Positions 39,041-48,458 of a DNA stretch of 64,000 bases are shown piece by piece. The position numbers and the translations under genes are program-made. Each line of letters starts with the position of its first letter. Positions within the stretch are counted from its first letter, which is position 1. The DNA is from Bacteroidales bacterium (GTDB taxonomy: Bacteria; Bacteroidota; Bacteroidia; Bacteroidales; F082). The notes under the pieces were generated by a model that saw only the letters and a program-made list of their open reading frames with translations, was not told the DNA's origin and searched no databases. The DNA lies in the NCBI GenBank assembly GCA_030690365.1, contig JAUYGX010000062.1, forward strand, positions 1 to 64,000, given 5' to 3'.

Positions 39041-41725
39041 ATGCCCAACCAAAATCCTGAACAATTAGCACGAGATCACATCGACGATCAACTCAAAGCT
39101 TGTGGCTGGGTCATTCAGGATTTGAAACGAATAAACCTTCATGCCGGTATTGGCGTGGCAGTAAAAGAATACCTCACAGATGTAGGCCCTGCCGACTATG
39201 TGTTGTTTGTAGAAGGAAAACCCTGCGGGGTAGTTGAAGCAAAGCGCGAAGAAGAAGGCCACAAACTCAATATGCACGAAGACCAGTCGGAAGGCTATGC
39301 CACGGCCAAACTCAAACATCTGAAGAATGAGCCTTTGCCTTTTGTTTACCTCAGCACAGGCGAAATCACCAGGTTCACCAACTTTACCGATCCCAAACCC
39401 AGGGCCAGAGAGCTGTTTAGCTTTCACCGTCCCGAAACCCTCCGCGACTGGCTCAAAAGTGAAAAATCGCTCCGGAGCAGATTGCACGACCTTCCTGTGC
39501 TACAGCCGGACGGATTGCGCGAATGCCAGATCAATGCCATCAATCAGTTGGAAGTTTCTTTCAAAGAAAAACGGCCCAGGGCCTTAATTCAAATGGCTAC
39601 CGGTGCGGGAAAAACATTCACCGCCATCACGGCCATCTACCGTTTGCTGAAATTTGCCAAAGCCAAAAGGGTATTGTTTCTGGTGGACACCAAAAACCTG
39701 GGCGAACAGGCCGAACAGGAGTTTATGTCGTTTGTTCCCAACGACGACAACCGAAAATTTACAGAGCTATACAGTGTGCAGCGCTTAAAATCAAGCTTTA
39801 TAGCGTCCGACAGCCAGGTTTGTATCAGCACCATACAACGGTTGTATTCCATTCTCAAGGGAACCGAGTTGGAGGAAAGCGCTGAGGAAGAAAACCCCAA
39901 TGAATCCCGATGGCAGCCAAAAGAAATCCCTCCTGTAGAGTACGACCCCAAAATGCCCGTCGAATTCTTCGATTTCATCGTGATCGATGAATGCCACCGC
40001 AGCATTTACAACCTCTGGAAACAGGTGCTAGAATATTATGATGCCTTCGAGATCGGACTCACAGCCACCCCCGATAAAAGGACCATTGGTTATTTCAACC
40101 AAAACCTGGTGAGCGAATACTCCCACGAAATGGCAGTGGCCGACGGGGTAAACGTAGGTTATGATGTTTTTATCATCGACACAAAAGTCTCGCAGCAAGG
40201 CGGCACCTTGTGGCAGGGTGAGTACATCGAACACAGGGAACGCTTAAGCCGGAAAAAACGCCTTGAATTACAGGATGAAGATGAGGTGTATTCAAGACAG
40301 CAACTGGACAAAGATGTGGTAAACCCCAATCAGATCAGGACCATTATCCGCTCATTCAAAGAAAATCTGCCGGCCATCTTCCCCGACCGTTTTACACGAT
40401 CTGCTACTGGTGAGAATCCCGTGGAGGTTTTTGAAGTCCCCAAAACCCTCATCTTTGCCAAAACCGACAGCCATGCCGACGACATCATTCAGATTGTAAG
40501 GGAAGAATTTGCCGAAGAAAACCGCTTCTGCAAAAAGATCACCTACAATTCGGACAAAGACCGAAAGGATGAAGACGACCAGGTAACTGAAAAGGGACAA
40601 GATCCCAAAACCACACTGTCGGATTTCCGGAATGCCTATCACCCGCGCATTGCAGTTACAGTAGACATGATCGCCACCGGCACCGACGTAAAACCCCTGG
40701 AGGTATTGCTTTTTATGCGCGACGTAAAAAGCAAGAATTACTTTGAACAGATGAAAGGCCGTGGCACACGGGTCATCGACCTCGACAGCCTCCGCAAGGT
40801 GACTCCTTCGGCACAGTCTACCAAAGACCATTTTGTAATCGTGGATGCCATTGGCGTGACCAGAAGCCTCAAAACCGACAGCCGTCCCCTGGAGAAAAAG
40901 CCCGGTATTCCTCTCAAAGATTTACTTCAAGCCATCGCCGTAGGTGCCCGTGATGAAGAACTGTTTACCTCACTGGCCAACCGGCTTACCCGCCTGGACA
41001 AACAAATTACCCCGAAAGAAAAAGCCCTGTTTGCCCTGAAGGCCAACGGCAAAAGTGTTTCGCAGGTGGTAAAGGAACTGTTAAATGCCTTTAATCCGGA
41101 TGCCCTCGAAGCCATTGAAACCCGGGTGAAAAATGAAGCCGGAGATACCGCTCCTGACGATCTGCAAACCGCCATAAAAATTGCAACCGAGCAATTTCAG
41201 AACGAAGCAGCCAAAGTATTTACAGGCGAACTGAACGAATACATCGAAAATGTCCGCAAGGCACATGAACAACGCATCGATGTTTCCAATCCAGATGAGG
41301 TAATCCAACTGGGCTGGGACAAGGACAATACCGAAAAGGCAAGCCAGATCATCCTGGAGTTCACCCAATGGATGGAGCTCCACAAGGATGAACTCACCGC
41401 CTTGCAGATTTTCTACAACCAGCCTTTCCGCCGCCGCGAACTCACCTACGCCATGATCAAAGAGGTGCTGGAGAAACTGCAAACCGACCAGCCTGCCCTG
41501 GCACCCCTGAATGTGTGGCGAGCCTATGAAGCCCTGGGGCAGTGCAATGGTTCCACACGCAACGAACTCACTGCCATCGTTTCGCTCATCCGCAAGGTAA
41601 GCGGAATTGATGCCACCACACGGTTTACGACCGCACCGTGGACAAAAATTTCCAGGACTGGGTATTTAGAAAACAAGCCGGTGCAACTAAGTTCAACGAA
41701 GAACAAATGCAATGGCTCCGCATGA
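39041..41725 (+). CDS. hsdR: Type I restriction enzyme subunit R (HsdR), frameshifted near the C-terminus
   Basis: ATP-dependent translocase and nuclease of a type I restriction system, EcoEI-like. The 894-aa frame has a PD-(D/E)XK nuclease domain (VGPADYVLFVEGKPCGVVEAKRE, read here as D-x(n)-EAK), Walker A MATGAGKTFTAIT (~184), VIDECHRSIY (~313), LTATPDKRT and QMKGRGTRVIDL (~568). A long helical C-terminal domain follows. After GIDAT (~858) the frame drifts into unrelated residues and stops at 41725. The expected family ending is found in another frame to 41880. A one-base loss at about 41615-41620 explains this. Confidence 0.9.
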   Translation: MPNQNPEQLARDHIDDQLKACGWVIQDLKRINLHAGIGVAVKEYLTDVGPADYVLFVEGKPCGVVEAKREEEGHKLNMHEDQSEGYATAKLKHLKNEPLPFVYLSTGEITRFTNFTDPKPRARELFSFHRPETLRDWLKSEKSLRSRLHDLPVLQPDGLRECQINAINQLEVSFKEKRPRALIQMATGAGKTFTAITAIYRLLKFAKAKRVLFLVDTKNLGEQAEQEFMSFVPNDDNRKFTELYSVQRLKSSFIASDSQVCISTIQRLYSILKGTELEESAEEENPNESRWQPKEIPPVEYDPKMPVEFFDFIVIDECHRSIYNLWKQVLEYYDAFEIGLTATPDKRTIGYFNQNLVSEYSHEMAVADGVNVGYDVFIIDTKVSQQGGTLWQGEYIEHRERLSRKKRLELQDEDEVYSRQQLDKDVVNPNQIRTIIRSFKENLPAIFPDRFTRSATGENPVEVFEVPKTLIFAKTDSHADDIIQIVREEFAEENRFCKKITYNSDKDRKDEDDQVTEKGQDPKTTLSDFRNAYHPRIAVTVDMIATGTDVKPLEVLLFMRDVKSKNYFEQMKGRGTRVIDLDSLRKVTPSAQSTKDHFVIVDAIGVTRSLKTDSRPLEKKPGIPLKDLLQAIAVGARDEELFTSLANRLTRLDKQITPKEKALFALKANGKSVSQVVKELLNAFNPDALEAIETRVKNEAGDTAPDDLQTAIKIATEQFQNEAAKVFTGELNEYIENVRKAHEQRIDVSNPDEVIQLGWDKDNTEKASQIILEFTQWMELHKDELTALQIFYNQPFRRRELTYAMIKEVLEKLQTDQPALAPLNVWRAYEALGQCNGSTRNELTAIVSLIRKVSGIDATTRFTTAPWTKISRTGYLENKPVQLSSTKNKCNGSA

Positions 41726-41880
41726 TCAAGGATTATGTCATCAGCAGTTTCCATATCGAGAAAGAGGATTTTGATTACAATCCCTTCAACGCGCAAGGCG
41801 GACTGGGTAAAATGTGGCAGCTGTTTGGCGAGCAAACAGAAGAAATTATTAATGAATTAAATGAGGTGTTGGCTGCTTAA
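41611..41880 (+). pseudogene. hsdR: Out-of-frame C-terminal part of hsdR
   Basis: From 41620 this frame reads TVYDRTVDKNFQDWVFRKQ, then EEQMQWLRMIKDYVISSFHIE, DDFDY-like EDFDYNPFNAQGGLGKMWQLFG and ELNEVLAA. This is the standard end of EcoEI-type HsdR. A TGA at 41608-41610 closes the frame upstream, so it cannot be an independent gene. Two bases instead of three separate codon ACC (to 41617) from ACG (41620). No homopolymer is present, so slippage is not obvious; assembly error or real inactivation are both possible. Confidence 0.8.
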
Positions 41881-41942: not shown

Positions 41943-42626
41943 ATGAAAGATGCACTACAGTCGAAGCCATTATTAGGTAAAGGGATTTACACAATTCCTG
42001 ATATGGCATCCATATTGGGGATTCCATATCCTAAAGTATTGCGATGGACCAATAAGTTTTGGAACGACCGGTTTGGTAGTCAATATCAATCATCTTATTC
42101 CTGGAATGTTGATTTAACCAAAGCAGTTAATTTTCATACGCTGATTGAAATCTATTTATTTTACGAACTTTCACAGGCTGGGGTTAAAACAAAAGAAATT
42201 CTGGGGGCACATGAGATTTTAAGTAAACAGTTTGACACATACTATCCATTCGCCATCAAGGAAGTTCTGAACAACATTAGAACTGATGGCACCAAAGTTC
42301 TATTCGAACAAAAGAATGGTTCTATATACACAGTTGATGCTACGAAGCAATTTAAGTTAGGTTTTATCAGAGAGTTTTTTAAAAATCTGGATTTCGGTTC
42401 AGATTCTCTTGCCGTTCGATTTTGGCCTATTGGAAAAGAAAGATCTATTATCTGCGATCCATATCGTCAGTTCGGACAGCCTATTATTAAAGGAACCAAC
42501 ATCCAGGCCGAAACTATTTATCGCATGTACCTTGCCGATGAGCCAATTGATTTTATTGCTTCCATCTATGAAATAAGCAGGAAGAATGTTTTAGATGCAA
42601 TAGAATTACACAAAAGAGCGGCATAA
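41943..42626 (+). CDS. DUF433 antitoxin-like protein with MerR-like N-terminus
   Basis: The 227-aa product begins with a helix-turn-helix region resembling MerR-type (GIYTIPDMASILGIPYPKVLRW). It ends with a DUF433 module (IICDPYRQFGQPIIKGTNIQ, then IDFIASIYEISRKNVLDAI), which occurs in antitoxins paired with PIN-like DUF5615 toxins. Its stop overlaps the ATG of the next gene by one base. It lies 62 bases after hsdR within the same direction of transcription and probably represses its own promoter (inference). Confidence 0.75.
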   Translation: MKDALQSKPLLGKGIYTIPDMASILGIPYPKVLRWTNKFWNDRFGSQYQSSYSWNVDLTKAVNFHTLIEIYLFYELSQAGVKTKEILGAHEILSKQFDTYYPFAIKEVLNNIRTDGTKVLFEQKNGSIYTVDATKQFKLGFIREFFKNLDFGSDSLAVRFWPIGKERSIICDPYRQFGQPIIKGTNIQAETIYRMYLADEPIDFIASIYEISRKNVLDAIELHKRAA

Positions 42627-43051
42627 TGAGGAAGTATAAAGTTTACATTGACGAAAATCTGCCACCTCAATTAGCGAAAGGTCTTCATGAGTTGCAATGG
42701 CCCCAGAATAAAAGAGATAATATTGAAATTCAGGTCTTATCAATAAAAGACACTTTTGGACAAGGGGAACAGGATGAGGACTGGATTCCTAAAGTAGGAG
42801 CGGAAAACGGCATCGTTATTACCCAGGATTATCGGATTCAAACCCAGCGTCATCAAAAAGAACTATATATTGAATGTGGAGTTGGAATATTGTTTTTTAG
42901 TCCCCCTTCAAAAAGTGGTTACCAATATTGGGATTTGGTCAAGCTGGTCATCAATCGATGGGAAGAAATTAAGCAAATTATTAAAAAAGACGATACTCCG
43001 TTTGCTTACCGGTGCACATCAAGAAAATCGTTTGAAAAAATTGAAGATTAG
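42626..43051 (+). CDS. PIN-like (DUF5615-type) putative toxin
   Basis: The 141-aa protein starts KVYIDENLPPQLAKGLHEL, the first acidic motif of PIN/Mut7-C-like nucleases, and has the second acidic site in GENGIVITQDYRI-like VITQDYRIQTQRH. Such proteins are predicted RNases inhibited by the DUF433 partner encoded just upstream. Target unknown. Spacing to hsdS is 19 bases, so the pair is part of the hsd operon and could guard it against loss (inference). Confidence 0.75.
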   Translation: MRKYKVYIDENLPPQLAKGLHELQWPQNKRDNIEIQVLSIKDTFGQGEQDEDWIPKVGAENGIVITQDYRIQTQRHQKELYIECGVGILFFSPPSKSGYQYWDLVKLVINRWEEIKQIIKKDDTPFAYRCTSRKSFEKIED

Positions 43052-43070: not shown

Positions 43071-44291
43071 ATGGACAAAATAAATATACCAAAGCATTGG
43101 AAGGTAAAAAAGTTGGGGGATGTGTGCGAAGTACTTGATAGTTTGCGTAAACCTATAAACGCAGCAGAAAGACAGCAGAGAATTTCTGGCAAGGATAAAA
43201 AAGAGCTTTACCCTTATTATGGAGCAACCGGTCAAGTTGGCTGGATTGATAATTTTATTACAGAGGGTGAATATATTTTAATTGGTGAAGATGGTGCTCC
43301 TTTCCTGGATATATTTAAAGACAAGGCATACATAATCAAAGGGAAAACATGGGTTAATAATCATGCTCATATTTTAAAAGGAAGAGAAAATATCATTCTT
43401 AATGATTTTGCTCTTTATTATCTCAATTCAATAAACTATAGGATGTTCGTTAATGGAACAACACGTTTAAAACTGACTAAAAGTAATTTAGTTGAAATTC
43501 CATTTGTTCTCCCTCCCCTCCCCGAACAACAAGCCATTGTTTCCCGTATCGAAGAACTGCTCAGCGACTTAGACAACGGCAAACAACAACTTCAACTGGC
43601 ACAACAACAATTAAAAACCTACCGCCAAAGTTTGTTAAACACTATTGTTACCGGGGAAAATCTTAAATCTATTGAATCAGTAATTAAAAAACTGGATCAA
43701 GGCTGGAGTCCCAAATGTTTAAATCAACATTCAGAAAATGACCTTGAATGGGCAGTAATAAAAACTACTGCGGTACAAAATGGTCATTTTAATTCCATTG
43801 AGAACAAGATTCTCCCTGCGAATTTAAAACCAAGAGTCCAACATGAATTAAAAGTTGGTGATATTTTAATTACACGGGCTGGTCCAAGAATCAGGGTTGG
43901 GGTTTGCTGTATGGTGAGAAAAACTAGACCAAGATTGATAAATTGTGACAAGGTTTACCGCATTAAAGTAAATGCTCAAACAATTAGTCCGGAATATTTT
44001 GAGTTTATACTAAATACCCCTTTTTATCAACGTGAAATTGAAAAAATGAAAAGTGGTATAAGCGATAGCGGATTGAATTTGACACAAAGTAAATTCCTTA
44101 AGATTGAAATTCCAGTTCCTGCACTTTCAAAACAACAACTCATCGTCTCTGAATTAGAATCCAAACTCACCGTTTGTGATAAAATTGAAGAAACCATCAG
44201 CGAAACCTTGCTTAAAAGCGAATCACTTCGGCAGTCCATTTTAAAGAAAGCATTCAGCGGTGAACTAATTAGAAGTCACAATAGTTTTTAA
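43071..44291 (+). CDS. hsdS: Type I restriction enzyme specificity subunit (HsdS)
   Basis: Chooses the DNA target for both methylation and cleavage. The 406-aa product has two target-recognition domains (residues ~1-145 and ~205-345). Each is followed by a conserved helical spacer: LPPLPEQQAIVSRIEELLSD in the centre and VPALSKQQLIVSELESKL at the end, closing with SILKKAFSGEL. The two-TRD layout predicts a bipartite recognition site. Base use is AT-rich compared with hsdR and hsdM. Confidence 0.93.
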   Translation: MDKINIPKHWKVKKLGDVCEVLDSLRKPINAAERQQRISGKDKKELYPYYGATGQVGWIDNFITEGEYILIGEDGAPFLDIFKDKAYIIKGKTWVNNHAHILKGRENIILNDFALYYLNSINYRMFVNGTTRLKLTKSNLVEIPFVLPPLPEQQAIVSRIEELLSDLDNGKQQLQLAQQQLKTYRQSLLNTIVTGENLKSIESVIKKLDQGWSPKCLNQHSENDLEWAVIKTTAVQNGHFNSIENKILPANLKPRVQHELKVGDILITRAGPRIRVGVCCMVRKTRPRLINCDKVYRIKVNAQTISPEYFEFILNTPFYQREIEKMKSGISDSGLNLTQSKFLKIEIPVPALSKQQLIVSELESKLTVCDKIEETISETLLKSESLRQSILKKAFSGELIRSHNSF

Positions 44292-44387
44292 TTTACCTTA
44301 TGTAATGAAGTCAGTTAAATTAATTAAATACATTATAATCAGATATTTTAAAAAGTACTTTTTATATTATAACTAAATAAATTGCAT
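44292..44387 (+). other. AT-rich spacer before the deaminase gene
   Basis: Ninety-six bases, very AT-rich, with the palindrome AAAAAGTACTTTTT (about 44350-44363) close to the start codon. It is a candidate operator or a place for a separate promoter for the deaminase. No clear TAnnTTTG is visible. Confidence 0.35.
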
Positions 44388-46277
44388 ATGAATTTGGACA
44401 AGATTTATGAAGTTCGTAAAAACTTCATCGTTATTGGATTAACGGGGAGAACAGGCGCTGGTTGTTCAAACGTTACTGAAATTTTGGAAAAGAAATTTGA
44501 AGAAAATGACTTCCCAAAACCATTATCTCATAAAGATCAAGAACATCCTGACGATGCAAAGTATAATATTGCATATAATTATTTAGAAAGCAACCATATA
44601 CCATTTACAGTTATAAAATACCAAAATATATTAGCCTTTTTTACCCTAAAAGAGGGATATGAGAAAATTGATAATTTTTTATCCAGTAATCCTAAAATTA
44701 GTAATCTAAAGGGTGTACTTGAAGAAATTAAAGGTGAAATAGACGAATTTCATAATAAAATAAAGAATCTTAATATTATAACTAAGGAAGAGTCAGATTT
44801 AAAAAAATTAAATAGTTGTTTTTTTGGATCGGAATTTCTATCAATATCAAAGAAACTTCACGAAAAACTTTCGGAAAAATCAAAAGTGACACGTCATCTT
44901 TTTTTACAGATCGTTTCTAACAATCTTAGACAAGTAGGTAACCCATTTGATTCTGGGGATACTTCAGATCCGGAGAATGTATATTTTATTGCCAAATTCA
45001 CTAATTTATTAATAAAGTCATGTAGAGAAAAAGCGCGCGACACAGATAATATTTGCAGAATTGTAATTGATTCTCTCAGAAATTCATTGGAGATGAATTT
45101 CTTTAAACAACGATATTCCGCATTTTATATGATCTCAGTCTCACGTTCAGAAACAGTAAGAGTTGAAAAGATTAGAAAATTTTTTGGAGATGATACTGAT
45201 ATAATAATTGGGTATGATAATGATGAACACGCCGGTAGTCCAGGTGAATTTTATAAACAAGATGTAAGTAATTGTATTCAAAAGGCAGATATTCATCTTT
45301 ATAATATTAAAGAAGAACAAGCTAAAACTGAAAGCGAACTAATAGGTTTAAGAATTATTAGTTTTAAGCATCAGATAGTTTCCTATTTATCATTAATTAT
45401 GCAGCCAGGGATAATCACTCCTTCTCCTCAAGAAAGGTGCATGCAAATGGCCTATACTGCAAAATATAATTCAGGATGTATTTCCAGACAAGTTGGAGCA
45501 TCGATAACTGACAGTAACTATTCTATAAAAGCACTAGGTTGGAACAATACACCAGAAGGTCAAATCCCATGTTTGTTAAGAAATGTAAAAGATTTAATTT
45601 CCAATGACAACAATTTTAATCCAAAATGGTATAGTAATTATGAACAAAGCGGTCTAAGTGATGAAAACCATAAATTCATTAAGACGTTAAAGAGTGTTTA
45701 TAAAAAGCCCATAGAGGATGAAGGTGTCATCAAGTGTTTATCTGGACGAAATGTACCTTATTGCTTTAAGACCATAATAAATTCTTATCAAGAAGGTAAA
45801 AATCAAGTACATACTAGATCCTTACATGCTGAAGAAAACGCTTTTCTTCAAATTTCAAAATATGGAGGGCAAGGAATAAATGGCGGGTTCTTATTTACCA
45901 CTGCTAGTCCTTGTGAGTTATGCGCTAAGAAAGCTTACCAACTAGGTATTAAGATTATTTTTTACATTGACCCTTATCCAGGTATAACAAAAGAACATAT
46001 CATCACATGTGGTGATGAAAATAAGATACCTAAAATGATGAATTTCTATGGTGCCATAGGAAATGCATATCACTGGTTATATGAACCTTTTATGACATAT
46101 AAAGATGAACTTGACCTGATACTTGGTATTAAAATTAAAAATGAGAATCAATCTCTAAAAGACGATAACAAGAATCTTCAAGAGAAATTGGATTTATTAG
46201 GTTTTATATATGATAATGAGACAAAATCATTTAAAGAAAAGCAAAATGGCCAACAAAACATTAGCAACAATAACTAA
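44388..46277 (+). CDS. avcD: Anti-phage dCTP/dCMP deaminase (AvcD-type)
   Basis: Two-domain protein of 629 aa. The N-terminal part is a P-loop NTPase/kinase-like domain with IVIGLTGRTGAGCSNVTEIL; the Walker lysine position is cysteine, as in related members. The C-terminal part is a zinc deoxycytidylate deaminase with HAE (~480-482; LHAEENAFLQIS) and PCELC (~508-512). AvcD-type enzymes deaminate dC nucleotides on phage infection and starve replication. The extreme C-terminus is a lysine/asparagine-rich coiled coil (from ~585). It is very AT-rich and sits between hsdS and a glycosylase-like gene. ATG at 44388 is chosen over TTG at 44382. Confidence 0.85.
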   Translation: MNLDKIYEVRKNFIVIGLTGRTGAGCSNVTEILEKKFEENDFPKPLSHKDQEHPDDAKYNIAYNYLESNHIPFTVIKYQNILAFFTLKEGYEKIDNFLSSNPKISNLKGVLEEIKGEIDEFHNKIKNLNIITKEESDLKKLNSCFFGSEFLSISKKLHEKLSEKSKVTRHLFLQIVSNNLRQVGNPFDSGDTSDPENVYFIAKFTNLLIKSCREKARDTDNICRIVIDSLRNSLEMNFFKQRYSAFYMISVSRSETVRVEKIRKFFGDDTDIIIGYDNDEHAGSPGEFYKQDVSNCIQKADIHLYNIKEEQAKTESELIGLRIISFKHQIVSYLSLIMQPGIITPSPQERCMQMAYTAKYNSGCISRQVGASITDSNYSIKALGWNNTPEGQIPCLLRNVKDLISNDNNFNPKWYSNYEQSGLSDENHKFIKTLKSVYKKPIEDEGVIKCLSGRNVPYCFKTIINSYQEGKNQVHTRSLHAEENAFLQISKYGGQGINGGFLFTTASPCELCAKKAYQLGIKIIFYIDPYPGITKEHIITCGDENKIPKMMNFYGAIGNAYHWLYEPFMTYKDELDLILGIKIKNENQSLKDDNKNLQEKLDLLGFIYDNETKSFKEKQNGQQNISNNN

Positions 46278-46358
46278 AGTCTGGTTATTTTCCCACACCA
46301 TAATTGATGTGCAGTATGAGATTCTTGGCACCTCTATAAATCAATTCAGTTATCAATT
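46278..46358 (+). other. Spacer between deaminase and glycosylase-like gene
   Basis: Eighty-one bases with no reading frame of note. No terminator hairpin was found, so read-through is likely. Confidence 0.35.
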
Positions 46359-46973
46359 ATGAATGACGAAGCCACTGTATTAGAACTAATGAAAAAATAT
46401 GGAGAACGAATTCTGCCAGTTTATTCGCTTCCAAAGGCATACTGCCCTGGAGGAACGGCAAATGTAAAAGGCATTTATCTTGGTTGCGATCCAAGTAATA
46501 GTCATTCTGAATCATTACCATTTGTTTTTGCACATGAAAGTGGACTCAAGGTATTTAGTTCCTTTTTAAAAGCTCATACGGAACAACTAAAACAAATCGG
46601 ATTAGGTTGGGAGGAAGTATATACCCAGAATCTATGTAGGAACTATTTTAAGAATGAAACAAGTAAAAATCCAATTTGGGCACAAGTTGCCAATGAATTT
46701 TGGATAAAAATATTGAAGGAGGAACTATCACAATTCGATTACAAGATTCCGGTCCTTCTAACATCTGCTTATCTTTATCATGTTTTGGTTACTGGTAAAA
46801 AGCACAAACCTATCGAATATTACCAGAACACTCAACCAATACCAATCCCTTCAGAATTGAACAAATTAAATCGTCCCTTAATTCCACTTTACAGGAACCG
46901 AAGAAAAATCGATTATCACCTGAGTAACCCTGCGTGGGAATCCTATAGAAATAAAATTAAAACCTTGTATTAA
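46359..46973 (+). CDS. Uracil-DNA-glycosylase-fold-like protein
   Basis: The 204-aa protein has, in order, VKGIYLGCDPSNSHS near residue 36, a middle strand VYTQNLCRNYF, a second strand IPVLLTSAYLYHVL and the C-terminal segment LIPLYRNRRKIDYHLSNPAW. This follows the layout of the UDG superfamily (LGQDPYH motif A, N-containing second strand, GKxA-like third strand, HPSP-like end). The first motif keeps the DP but has C for Q and N for H. The catalytic end motif is degenerate, so activity is uncertain. It abuts hsdM without a gap. Uracil DNA binding or cleavage is inference from the fold and the neighbour. Confidence 0.5.
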   Translation: MNDEATVLELMKKYGERILPVYSLPKAYCPGGTANVKGIYLGCDPSNSHSESLPFVFAHESGLKVFSSFLKAHTEQLKQIGLGWEEVYTQNLCRNYFKNETSKNPIWAQVANEFWIKILKEELSQFDYKIPVLLTSAYLYHVLVTGKKHKPIEYYQNTQPIPIPSELNKLNRPLIPLYRNRRKIDYHLSNPAWESYRNKIKTLY

Positions 46974-48458
46974 ATGACAACCTCCTCCATAGTATCCAAA
47001 GTCTGGTCATTCTGCAACCCCCTGCGCGACGTAGGCGTAGGTTACGGTGATTACCTGGAACAACTCACCTACCTGCTTTTTCTGAAAATGGCCGATGAAT
47101 ACAGCAAACCACCCTACAACCGGAAATTGAATATTCCGGCAGCTTACAACTGGGAAAGCCTCACGGCCAAAAAAGGAACCGAACTGGAACTGCACTATGT
47201 CACCCTCCTGCGTGAACTAAGCACTGCCAAAGGCATCCTGGGTCAGATATTCACCAAAAGCCAGAACAAGATACAGGATCCTGCCATGCTGGCCAAAATC
47301 ATCGACATGATCAACAGCGAACAATGGCTCGTGATGGGTGCCGATATAAAAGGCGACATCTATGAAAAGCTGCTGGAGCAAAATGCACAGGATGTTAAAA
47401 GCGGTGCAGGTCAGTACTTCACTCCGCGCCCGTTAATCCGTGCCATGGTGGAATGCGTCAGGCCGCAACCCATGAAAACCATCGCCGACCCGGCCTGTGG
47501 TACCGGTGGATTCTTTTTGGCTGCTTACGACTATCTGGTGGCCAATAACAAACTCGACAAAGACCAAAACAAATTTATCAAGCTGGAGACTTTCTACGGA
47601 AACGAAATTGTTGCAGGCACCAGGCGTCTGGCCCTGATGAACATGTTTCTACACAACATCGGTGACATCGACAGCGATAATTTCATCTCCCCGGCAGACG
47701 CCCTCATTGCCGCTTCGCCGGTAACCTATGACTACGTGCTGGCCAATCCACCCTTTGGCAAAAAAAGCAGTCAGACCTTCACCAACGACGAAGGCGAACA
47801 GGAAAAAGACGACCTCACCTACAACCGACAGGATTTCTGGGCCACCACCAGCAACAAGCAGCTCAATTTTGTACAGCACATCCGCTCCATGCTCAAAACC
47901 ACCGGAGTAGCTGCCGTCGTGGTACCCGACAATGTTCTTTTTGAAGGGGGAGCAGGAGAAACTGTCCGTAAAAAGCTTCTGGAAACCACAGACCTGCATA
48001 CCATCCTGCGCCTGCCCACAGGTATTTTCTACGCTCAGGGCGTAAAAGCAAATGTGATATTTTTCGACAACAAACCGGCCAGTAAAGATCCCTGGACCAA
48101 GGAAATTTGGGTATATGATTACCGTACCAACATACATCACACCTTAAAGAAAAACCCGTTGAATATTGAGGTATTGAAAGACTTCATTGCCTGTTATCAT
48201 CCAACCAATCGGCATCAGCGCAAAGAGCTATTTAATGCCGAAACCAACCCCGAAGGCCGTTGGAGAAAATTTACCTATGAGGAGATTATCGCCCGCGACA
48301 AAACCAGCCTCGACATCTCCTGGCTAAAGGACAAATCGCTGGCCGATCTCGACAACCTCCCCGACCCTGATATCCTCGCTGCCGATATCATTGAAAACCT
48401 CGAAGCAGGATTGGCCAGCTTTCGGGAGATCATGATCAAACTGGAATCGAAAGAGTAG
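46974..48458 (+). CDS. hsdM: Type I DNA methyltransferase (HsdM)
   Basis: N6-adenine methyltransferase subunit. The 494-aa product has an N-terminal helical domain (YGDYLEQLTYLLFLKMADEY), the SAM motif I IADPACGTGGFFLAAYDYL (~165) and catalytic motif IV DYVLANPPFGKK (~252), then VPDNVLFEGGAG. It starts immediately after the stop of the glycosylase-like gene (TAA then ATG), so it is translationally close. It is the last gene of the locus; most hsd operons have hsdM next to hsdS. Codon use is G+C-richer, like hsdR. Confidence 0.95.
   Translation: MTTSSIVSKVWSFCNPLRDVGVGYGDYLEQLTYLLFLKMADEYSKPPYNRKLNIPAAYNWESLTAKKGTELELHYVTLLRELSTAKGILGQIFTKSQNKIQDPAMLAKIIDMINSEQWLVMGADIKGDIYEKLLEQNAQDVKSGAGQYFTPRPLIRAMVECVRPQPMKTIADPACGTGGFFLAAYDYLVANNKLDKDQNKFIKLETFYGNEIVAGTRRLALMNMFLHNIGDIDSDNFISPADALIAASPVTYDYVLANPPFGKKSSQTFTNDEGEQEKDDLTYNRQDFWATTSNKQLNFVQHIRSMLKTTGVAAVVVPDNVLFEGGAGETVRKKLLETTDLHTILRLPTGIFYAQGVKANVIFFDNKPASKDPWTKEIWVYDYRTNIHHTLKKNPLNIEVLKDFIACYHPTNRHQRKELFNAETNPEGRWRKFTYEEIIARDKTSLDISWLKDKSLADLDNLPDPDILAADIIENLEAGLASFREIMIKLESKE

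What the first reader, a model, noticed from the sequence alone, without database searches (positions are those of the whole stretch)
44388..46973. Possible two-gene defence module: dC deaminase plus uracil-glycosylase-like partner
AvcD-type enzymes turn dC nucleotides into dU nucleotides. The next gene resembles the UDG fold, which recognises uracil in DNA. If infection raises dUTP and phage polymerases insert uracil, the second protein could bind or cut that DNA. This would add a DNA-damaging arm to nucleotide depletion. I know of no description of this pair; the link is inference.
Basis: inference. Interest (0 to 1): 0.8.

Follow-up and report, generated by a model that had tools for sequence, protein, structure and literature searches.

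The report
UDG-fold protein nested in restriction operon
The two genes are real, but they are not a recurring pair: the deaminase and the uracil-glycosylase-like protein look like separate passengers of a type I restriction-modification operon, and the glycosylase-like family repeatedly sits in such operons, which makes it a candidate anti-phage DNA glycosylase.

Summary
Both genes exist at the stated coordinates. 44388-46277 is a dCTP deaminase of the AvcD kind. The claimed pair is not supported. None of 27 other places found for the 204-aa family holds an AvcD relative in the DNA held, none of 7 AvcD loci examined holds the 204-aa family, and a published test found no role for Ung or Dut in AvcID defence. 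Both genes lie between hsdS and hsdM of a type I restriction operon. That slot is a variable cargo bay (14 of 16 comparable loci hold other ORFs there). The 204-aa family lies within 8 kb of type I genes in 15 of 28 places, within 50 bp of a subunit in 10, with changing partners (GmrSD, DUF1016, AvcD), and is once fused to an HNH domain. A UDG of another lineage occupies the same slot in one other genome. Best reading: a restriction-associated UDG-fold protein, probably a Brig1-like excisor or reader of unusual bases in phage DNA. Activity and substrate are untested.

The parts
39041..41725 (+). hsdR (type I restriction subunit), reading frame interrupted near its 3' end
   Evidence: Pfam ResIII 2.6e-40, HSDR_N 1.6e-8, first half of EcoEI_R_C; a 940-aa relative in one ORF in L023 at 80% identity
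41638..41880 (+). continuation of the HsdR C-terminal domain in another frame
   Evidence: EcoEI_R_C positions 89-162, 5.4e-21
41943..42626 (+). HTH-DUF433 protein, likely antitoxin of the next gene (inference)
   Evidence: Pfam DUF433 1.8e-8
42626..43051 (+). PIN-like protein, likely toxin (inference)
   Evidence: Pfam PIN_10 3.8e-21
43071..44291 (+). hsdS (type I specificity subunit)
   Evidence: Pfam Methylase_S 1.2e-27; PADLOC Specificity_I 1.7e-49
44292..44387 (+). AT-rich gap (15.6% GC) before the deaminase gene; no RNA structure above shuffled sequence
44388..46277 (+). AvcD-type dCTP deaminase, 629 aa, passenger of the restriction operon
   Evidence: PADLOC dCTPase 2e-125; motifs; GC 30.5% against 49.3% for hsdR and hsdM
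46359..46973 (+). UDG-superfamily protein of an unannotated family ('UDGl'), 204 aa, with D44, F57, N91 and R179
   Evidence: AlphaFold2 pLDDT 93.5; VIA Z 12.9 to 4zbx; conserved residues
46974..48458 (+). hsdM (type I methylase subunit), starts directly after the UDGl stop codon
   Evidence: Pfam N6_Mtase 3.1e-67; PADLOC MTase_I 2.9e-192

Best explanation
The 204-aa protein (UDGl) is a UDG-superfamily defence protein carried as cargo in type I restriction-modification operons. Shown: the predicted fold, the conserved pocket residues, and the recurrent nesting in restriction loci with changing partners. Inferred: it recognises an abnormal or modified pyrimidine in invading DNA, excises it to leave an abasic site (as Brig1 does), and so attacks phages whose base modifications blind the restriction enzyme beside it; strand cutting is left to HsdR, GmrSD-type or DUF1016-type nucleases, to a fused HNH domain in one member, or to the host's own AP endonucleases. 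The deaminase next door is an independent nucleotide-depletion passenger of the same cargo bay.
For: UDG fold. Residues that hhalign sets against UNG Asp64, Phe77 and Asn123 (E. coli numbering recalled) are kept: D44 in 24 of 24, F57 in 23 of 24, N91 in 24 of 24 rows of A4. A sister family with GQDPT and HQP(S/T) motifs links the family by profile to UNG (A5-A8 E 2.4e-13, probability 98%; A8-A6 E 2.4e-5, probability 75%). Type I genes within 8 kb in 15 of 28 places, a type I subunit within 50 bp on the same strand in 10 of 28; controls: 0 type I hits in 48 other loci, 155.8 kb, and 174 HsdM_N matches in 149 genomes (sum checked). Partners change: AvcD here, GmrSD in 4 of 28, DUF1016 in 2 of 28. 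One member is fused to an HNH-type domain (PHROGs 1.6e-9; Pfam HNH below cut-off). A different, Pfam-recognised UDG (2.4e-18) lies between hsdS and hsdM in L106. Brig1 precedent (PMC11078745).
Against: No activity data. The position of the UNG catalytic histidine (HPS motif) is an arginine in 23 of 24 rows, so the protein could be inactive or only a binder. The direct profile match of the family to UNG or to a SMUG-like UDG is not significant (probability 4% and 0.3%), and only 2 of 24 members touch Pfam UDG, at best E 0.025, well short of its cut-off. In 9 of 28 places no restriction or known defence gene was recognised in the stretch held, and on a weak tree the type I label is no more clustered than shuffled labels. 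Type I loci tend to lie in defence islands, so proximity alone overstates functional linkage. In the 16 related operons whose slot could be read, UDGl itself was absent.
Confidence: 0.5

Rival explanations
1. The first reader's module: AvcD raises dUTP, uracil enters phage DNA, and UDGl excises or binds it, adding DNA damage to nucleotide depletion.
For: The two genes are adjacent on one strand, 81 bp apart; the chemistry is compatible; UDGl has a UDG-like pocket.
Against: AvcD beside UDGl in 1 of 28 places, the window. In L031, with hsdM 76% identical, the same slot holds UDGl and GmrSD, no AvcD. None of 7 AvcD loci read encodes UDGl; of 7 plasmid records with AvcD five were opened, one of these had no annotation, and the other four show no annotated UDG within up to 5 kb. 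ung deletion and dut overexpression do not alter AvcID defence against T5 (PMC10511110 passages). GC differs, 30.5% against 35.3%.
Confidence: 0.1
2. UDGl is a non-catalytic reader or guard: the altered pocket binds DNA, or a phage DNA-mimic inhibitor of the restriction enzyme, and triggers or protects the complex, in the manner of PrrC guarding a type IC enzyme.
For: Nesting inside type I operons like prrC (PMC12707154 passages); loss of the HPS histidine; UDGs are known targets of DNA-mimic inhibitors such as Ugi (recalled).
Against: D44, F57 and N91 are kept almost without exception, which a pure scaffold would not need; places without recognised type I genes exist.
Confidence: 0.2
3. UDGl is a repair enzyme that protects the host genome, for example from uracil made by a neighbour or from damage at stalled restriction complexes, and is in the operon by chance.
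For: Most characterised UDG-superfamily members are repair enzymes (recalled).
Against: The host already has two PF03167 UDGs elsewhere; the family is patchy (matches, the own genome included, in 4 of 395, 9 of 295 and 1 of 395 genomes) and is often in restriction loci.
Confidence: 0.12

Closest known systems
Brig1, defensive DNA glycosylase (Hossain et al. 2024, PMC11078745; abstract, sections 10 and 13 and passages read)
   Same: UDG-superfamily protein in defence loci; best structural match a family 4 UDG of S. tokodaii (4ZBY there by DALI; 4zbx/4zby here by VIA); homologues annotated as hypothetical proteins
   Different: Its homologues were found mostly in Actinobacteria; brig1 itself lies near ThsA-like and Wadjet genes and some homologues near BREX/Pgl genes, not noted there as nested in type I operons in what I read. 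Brig1 relies on Y121 and E147; this family keeps F57 and N91. Substrate known there, unknown here.
Family 1 UNG, family 4 UDG, UdgX
   Same: Fold; GxDP motif with the Asp, stacking Phe and pocket Asn of family 1
   Different: The Tyr of GQDPYH is Thr or Ser; the HPS histidine is replaced by Arg
AvcD / anti-phage dCTP deaminase
   Same: Near full-length match to PADLOC dCTPase, P-loop and deaminase motifs
   Different: Below the NF041025 cut-off (353 of 400 bits); no recognised AvcI RNA; lies in a restriction operon
PrrC and other genes nested in type I restriction operons (PMC12707154, passages read)
   Same: Accessory defence gene embedded among hsd genes
   Different: PrrC is an anticodon nuclease; the review does not hold the word uracil, and its three uses of glycosylase do not concern nested type I passengers
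R.PabI restriction glycosylases (PMC10273834, passages read) and Brig3 (PMC13160076, abstract and section 8 read)
   Same: Base excision used as restriction or phage defence
   Different: Brig3 is described as similar to AAG, and R.PabI as its own superfamily; the model here is a UDG fold

Membership tests
UDG superfamily | Overall fold | tested here: met
   pLDDT 93.5, pTM 0.91; all 20 Foldseek PDB hits at E<=1e-3 are UDG or UdgX; VIA Z 12.9 over 168 residues, rmsd 3.2
UDG superfamily | Motif with catalytic acid, and pocket Asn | tested here: met
   G42, D44, P45 and N91 in 24 of 24 rows, aligned with UNG GQDP and LLLN by hhalign (itself not significant)
UDG superfamily | HPS-type second motif (not universal: E. 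coli MUG differs, recalled) | tested here: not met
   Arg179 in 23 of 24 rows; the sister-family row L021 has His
UDG superfamily | Pfam UDG model over its cut-off | tested here: not met
   2 of 24 members match, best E 0.025; the window protein has no hit
UDG superfamily | Base excision activity | not testable with these tools
   needs an enzyme assay
Family 1 UNG | GQDPYH and significant sequence similarity | tested here: not met
   GCDPSN here; hhalign probability 4%
Brig1 family | Sequence homology to Brig1 and excision of alpha-glucosyl-hmC | not tested
AvcD / anti-phage dCTP deaminase | P-loop plus zinc deaminase domain, full-length profile match | tested here: met
   PADLOC 2e-125 over residues 5-622; motifs
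AvcD / anti-phage dCTP deaminase | NCBIfam NF041025 cut-off | tested here: not met
   353 bits against 400
AvcID toxin-antitoxin | AvcI RNA upstream of avcD | tested here: inconclusive
   96-nt gap, fold z-score 0.59, no Rfam match near a cut-off; whether AvcI is in Rfam was not checked
Type I restriction-modification operon | hsdR, hsdM and hsdS on one strand | tested here: met
   the hsdR frame is interrupted, so restriction may be lost in this assembly
   1 of 28 places; 0 of 7 AvcD loci

The most novel reading that the evidence does not exclude
Type I restriction operons of Bacteroidota and relatives have repeatedly recruited UDG-fold glycosylases of at least two lineages as a second, modification-directed arm: the restriction complex attacks phages with plain DNA, and the glycosylase destroys the DNA of phages whose substituted pyrimidines (uracil, hydroxymethyluracil or hypermodified bases) make them immune to it, with an Arg in place of the usual His and a Thr or Ser in place of the usual Tyr adapting the pocket to bulky bases.
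Probability: 0.3. Interest if true: 0.75.

Novelty: new variant of a known kind. Interest (0 to 1): 0.5.

Why it matters
Few DNA glycosylases are known to act in defence (Brig1, Brig3 and R.PabI among those read about here). A UDG-fold family missed by Pfam, PADLOC, NCBIfam and PHROGs and nested in type I restriction operons would tie base excision directly to classical restriction, and the 28 places found give a ready set for testing. It also corrects the attractive but unsupported idea of a deaminase-glycosylase module.

Tried and rejected
Rejected: a dedicated deaminase-glycosylase pair. No sign that UDGl is phage-borne: pattern-based scans of viral contigs found no relative and tblastn of the window protein found none at E<=0.01 in phages or plasmids; one viral contig encodes the GQDPT sister family. 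No structured RNA was recognised in the two gaps (the two Rfam hits are far below cut-off). Promoter-like and terminator-like sites occur at about the shuffled rate (31 against mean 25.1, and 11 against 10.4). A fold of the HNH fusion member was poor outside the UDG part (mean pLDDT 69), so the HNH call rests on PHROGs profiles and a sub-cut-off Pfam hit. A tree of 24 rows was weakly resolved (13 of 21 inner branches open); the type I label needs 9 changes on it, and 478 of 500 shuffles are as low, so the association is scattered over the tree; this speaks against one inherited operon but also gives no clustering in support. AvcD relatives in viral contigs: none by the window protein's patterns, although the deaminase matches phage family phrog_8118 at 3.4e-115.

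Rows dropped: of 30 genomes with an hsdM match at 1e-100, the window apart, the 19 with at least 60% identity were fetched; L107 was lost (my simple gene caller took an ORF on the opposite strand) and L111 and L114 show no hsdS, leaving 16. Fragments or broken copies L020, L033, L037 and L044 and the short copy L019 are in the 28 but not in alignment A4, which holds 23 members and the sister row L021. Of 20 UDG loci, 9 ORFs passed the filter, and 8 of them plus L106 went into A6 and A7. The counts include G124 and G669 (sister family) and G593 and G677 (stop-ridden hits). My gene calls are longest-ORF picks, not a trained gene finder. Only chosen neighbours were sent to Pfam or PADLOC, so type I or defence genes may be undercounted; L027 has a GIY-YIG neighbour and L017 a NOV_C neighbour that I did not count as defence. 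The 48 control loci are 3-kb stretches around deaminase and UDG hits, shorter than the UDGl loci (3.3 to 20.6 kb, 399.8 kb in all).

Absence from print was looked for only; subscription papers and supplements were not searchable. DefensePredictor (PMC13092281, passages and figure legends read) lists a UDG domain among predicted, unvalidated systems; whether it is this family is unknown.

Full report
What is there. The window is part of a 4.33-Mb genome. On the + strand runs a type I restriction operon: hsdR 39041-41725 (frame interrupted; its C-terminal domain continues in 41638-41880), HTH-DUF433 41943-42626, PIN_10 42626-43051, hsdS 43071-44291, the deaminase 44388-46277, the 204-aa gene 46359-46973, and hsdM 46974-48458, which starts on the base after the 204-aa gene's stop codon. 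hsdR and hsdM have 49.3% GC; the five genes between them have 30.5 to 37.3% (deaminase 30.5%, 204-aa gene 35.3%, hsdS 35.1%). The stretch between the two conserved subunits therefore looks imported (inference).

The deaminase. It matches PADLOC dCTPase over nearly its full length (2e-125) and carries a P-loop and both zinc-site motifs. It scores 353 bits against NF041025, whose cut-off is 400. Full-length relatives are rare: among 295 genomes of the order only this genome and one other (G543, 40% identity) have one, plus a partial match in G396; the other matches shown are short and cover the dCMP-deaminase core. Seven plasmid records carry a relative at E<=1e-30. In Picosynechococcus plasmid pAQ5 it follows a restriction endonuclease, a UPF0175/DUF3368 pair and a DNA methyltransferase, so a restriction neighbourhood without an annotated UDG is seen for the deaminase too; that record offers little sequence downstream.

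The 204-aa protein. No Pfam, PADLOC, NCBIfam or PHROGs family is hit. With 22 family members the AlphaFold2 model is confident (pLDDT 93.5, pTM 0.91). Foldseek's 20 PDB hits at E<=1e-3 are all UDG or UdgX, and VIA gives Z 12.9 over 168 residues to 4zbx. Sequence evidence agrees but is thin: the family profile matches a two-sequence sister family with GQDPT and HQP(S/T) motifs at E 2.4e-13, and that sister matches UNG at E 2.4e-5 over 56 columns. The direct comparison with UNG is not significant, though it places D44, F57 and N91 on the UNG Asp, Phe and Asn of the pocket; the comparison with a SMUG-like UDG finds nothing. D44 and N91 are present in 24 of 24 rows, F57 in 23. The UNG tyrosine after GQDP is Thr or Ser in 24 of 24, which in UNG terms would open the pocket to groups on C5 (inference from recalled UNG biochemistry). 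The HPS histidine is replaced by Arg in 23 of 24.

Is it a pair? One pattern-based scan of a collection of 84,980 species genomes gave 24 relatives; with three further places from genome searches and the window this makes 28 distinct places, some of them fragments or short contigs. AvcD is present in one, the window. None of 7 AvcD loci read encodes the 204-aa family. A published experiment asked the same mechanistic question for AvcID and found no role for Ung or for dUTP accumulation (PMC10511110, passages read).

What does it keep company with? Type I genes lie within 8 kb in 15 of 28 places (window, L020, L023, L024, L025, L029, L030, L031, L032, L034, L035, L038, L041, L045, L046). In 10 of 28 a type I subunit lies within 50 bp or overlaps on the same strand (window, L020, L023, L031, L032, L034, L035, L038, L041, L046). 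HsdR types differ (EcoEI-like in the window, with L023 and L031 close to it; HindI-like in L038 and L046), so this is not one inherited operon; on a weakly resolved tree the association needs 9 changes, no fewer than shuffled labels. GmrSD-type nucleases are next to it in 4 of 28 (L019, L031, L037, L045), DUF1016 nucleases in 2 (L032, L034), and an AIPR/MzaE protein in L042, where the protein itself carries an HNH-type domain at its C-terminus. L040 has only a helicase and an SMC-type ATPase. In 9 of 28 no restriction or known defence gene was recognised (L017, L026, L027, L028, L033, L036, L039, L043, L044); four of these are short contigs or fragments (L026, L033, L039, L044). Controls: 0 type I hits in 48 other loci totalling 155.8 kb; 174 HsdM_N matches in 149 genomes of the order, which at a few megabases per genome is well under one per megabase (estimate).

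The slot. Among 19 fetched loci with a closely related hsdM, 16 show both hsdS and hsdM; 14 of 16 hold at least one extra ORF of 60 aa or more between them. Cargo from 10 of those loci was sent to Pfam: a Schlafen-AlbA protein, a SIR2-like protein, AAA/ABC-type ATPases in two loci, a SEC-C protein, a CAAX protease, a weak transposase-like hit, one UDG, and three proteins without a hit; L101 and L104 appear to share cargo (by eye). None of the 16 holds UDGl or AvcD, but L106 holds a different UDG with INPG and HPR motifs and Pfam UDG at 2.4e-18. In L031 (hsdM 76% identical) the slot holds UDGl plus GmrSD. This looks like a cargo bay whose contents turn over, and UDG-fold proteins of two lineages were taken up into it.

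Mechanism. Shown: predicted fold, pocket residues, genomic association. Inferred: recognition of an abnormal pyrimidine in foreign DNA, excision, and phage arrest, by analogy with Brig1, whose best structural match is also a family 4 UDG and many of whose homologues lie in putative defence islands (PMC11078745). Genes nested in type I operons with their own defence activity are known, PrrC being a described case (PMC12707154 passages), which also feeds the guard rival.

Verdict. The pair is not supported. What remains is a restriction-associated UDG-fold family of unproven activity: a new variant of defensive DNA glycosylases nested in a known kind of operon.

Noticed in passing
window 41615-41880: hsdR is interrupted by a frame change near its 3' end, splitting the EcoEI_R_C domain; a relative in one ORF exists in L023. 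Assembly error and real loss cannot be told apart here.
   Followed up: partly
L106:11155-11865: A different UDG (INPG/HPR motifs, 48-50% identical to UDGs elsewhere in the window's genome and a relative) sits between hsdS and hsdM of a related type I operon.
   Followed up: partly
L042:9977-11176: Family member with a C-terminal HNH/endonuclease VII-like domain, next to an AIPR/MzaE gene; seen in one genome.
   Followed up: partly
window 41943-43051 and L025:7701-8787: The same HTH-DUF433 plus PIN-like pair (41% and 60% identity) lies near UDGl in a second restriction locus.
   Followed up: no
L021:9764-10414, L022:2851-3558, L119:5001-5615: Sister UDG-like family with GQDPT and HQP(S/T) motifs (motifs read in L021 and L022); the L119 copy is on a viral contig.
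   Followed up: partly
L100-L118: The hsdS-hsdM gap of this type I subfamily holds extra ORFs in 14 of 16 readable loci.
   Followed up: yes
L121 (Picosynechococcus plasmid pAQ5): AvcD relative directly after a restriction endonuclease, a PIN-type pair and a DNA methyltransferase.
   Followed up: no
window 41921: Single TAnnTTTG (Bacteroidota promoter-like, recalled) match 22 bp before the HTH-DUF433 gene; one match may be chance.
   Followed up: no
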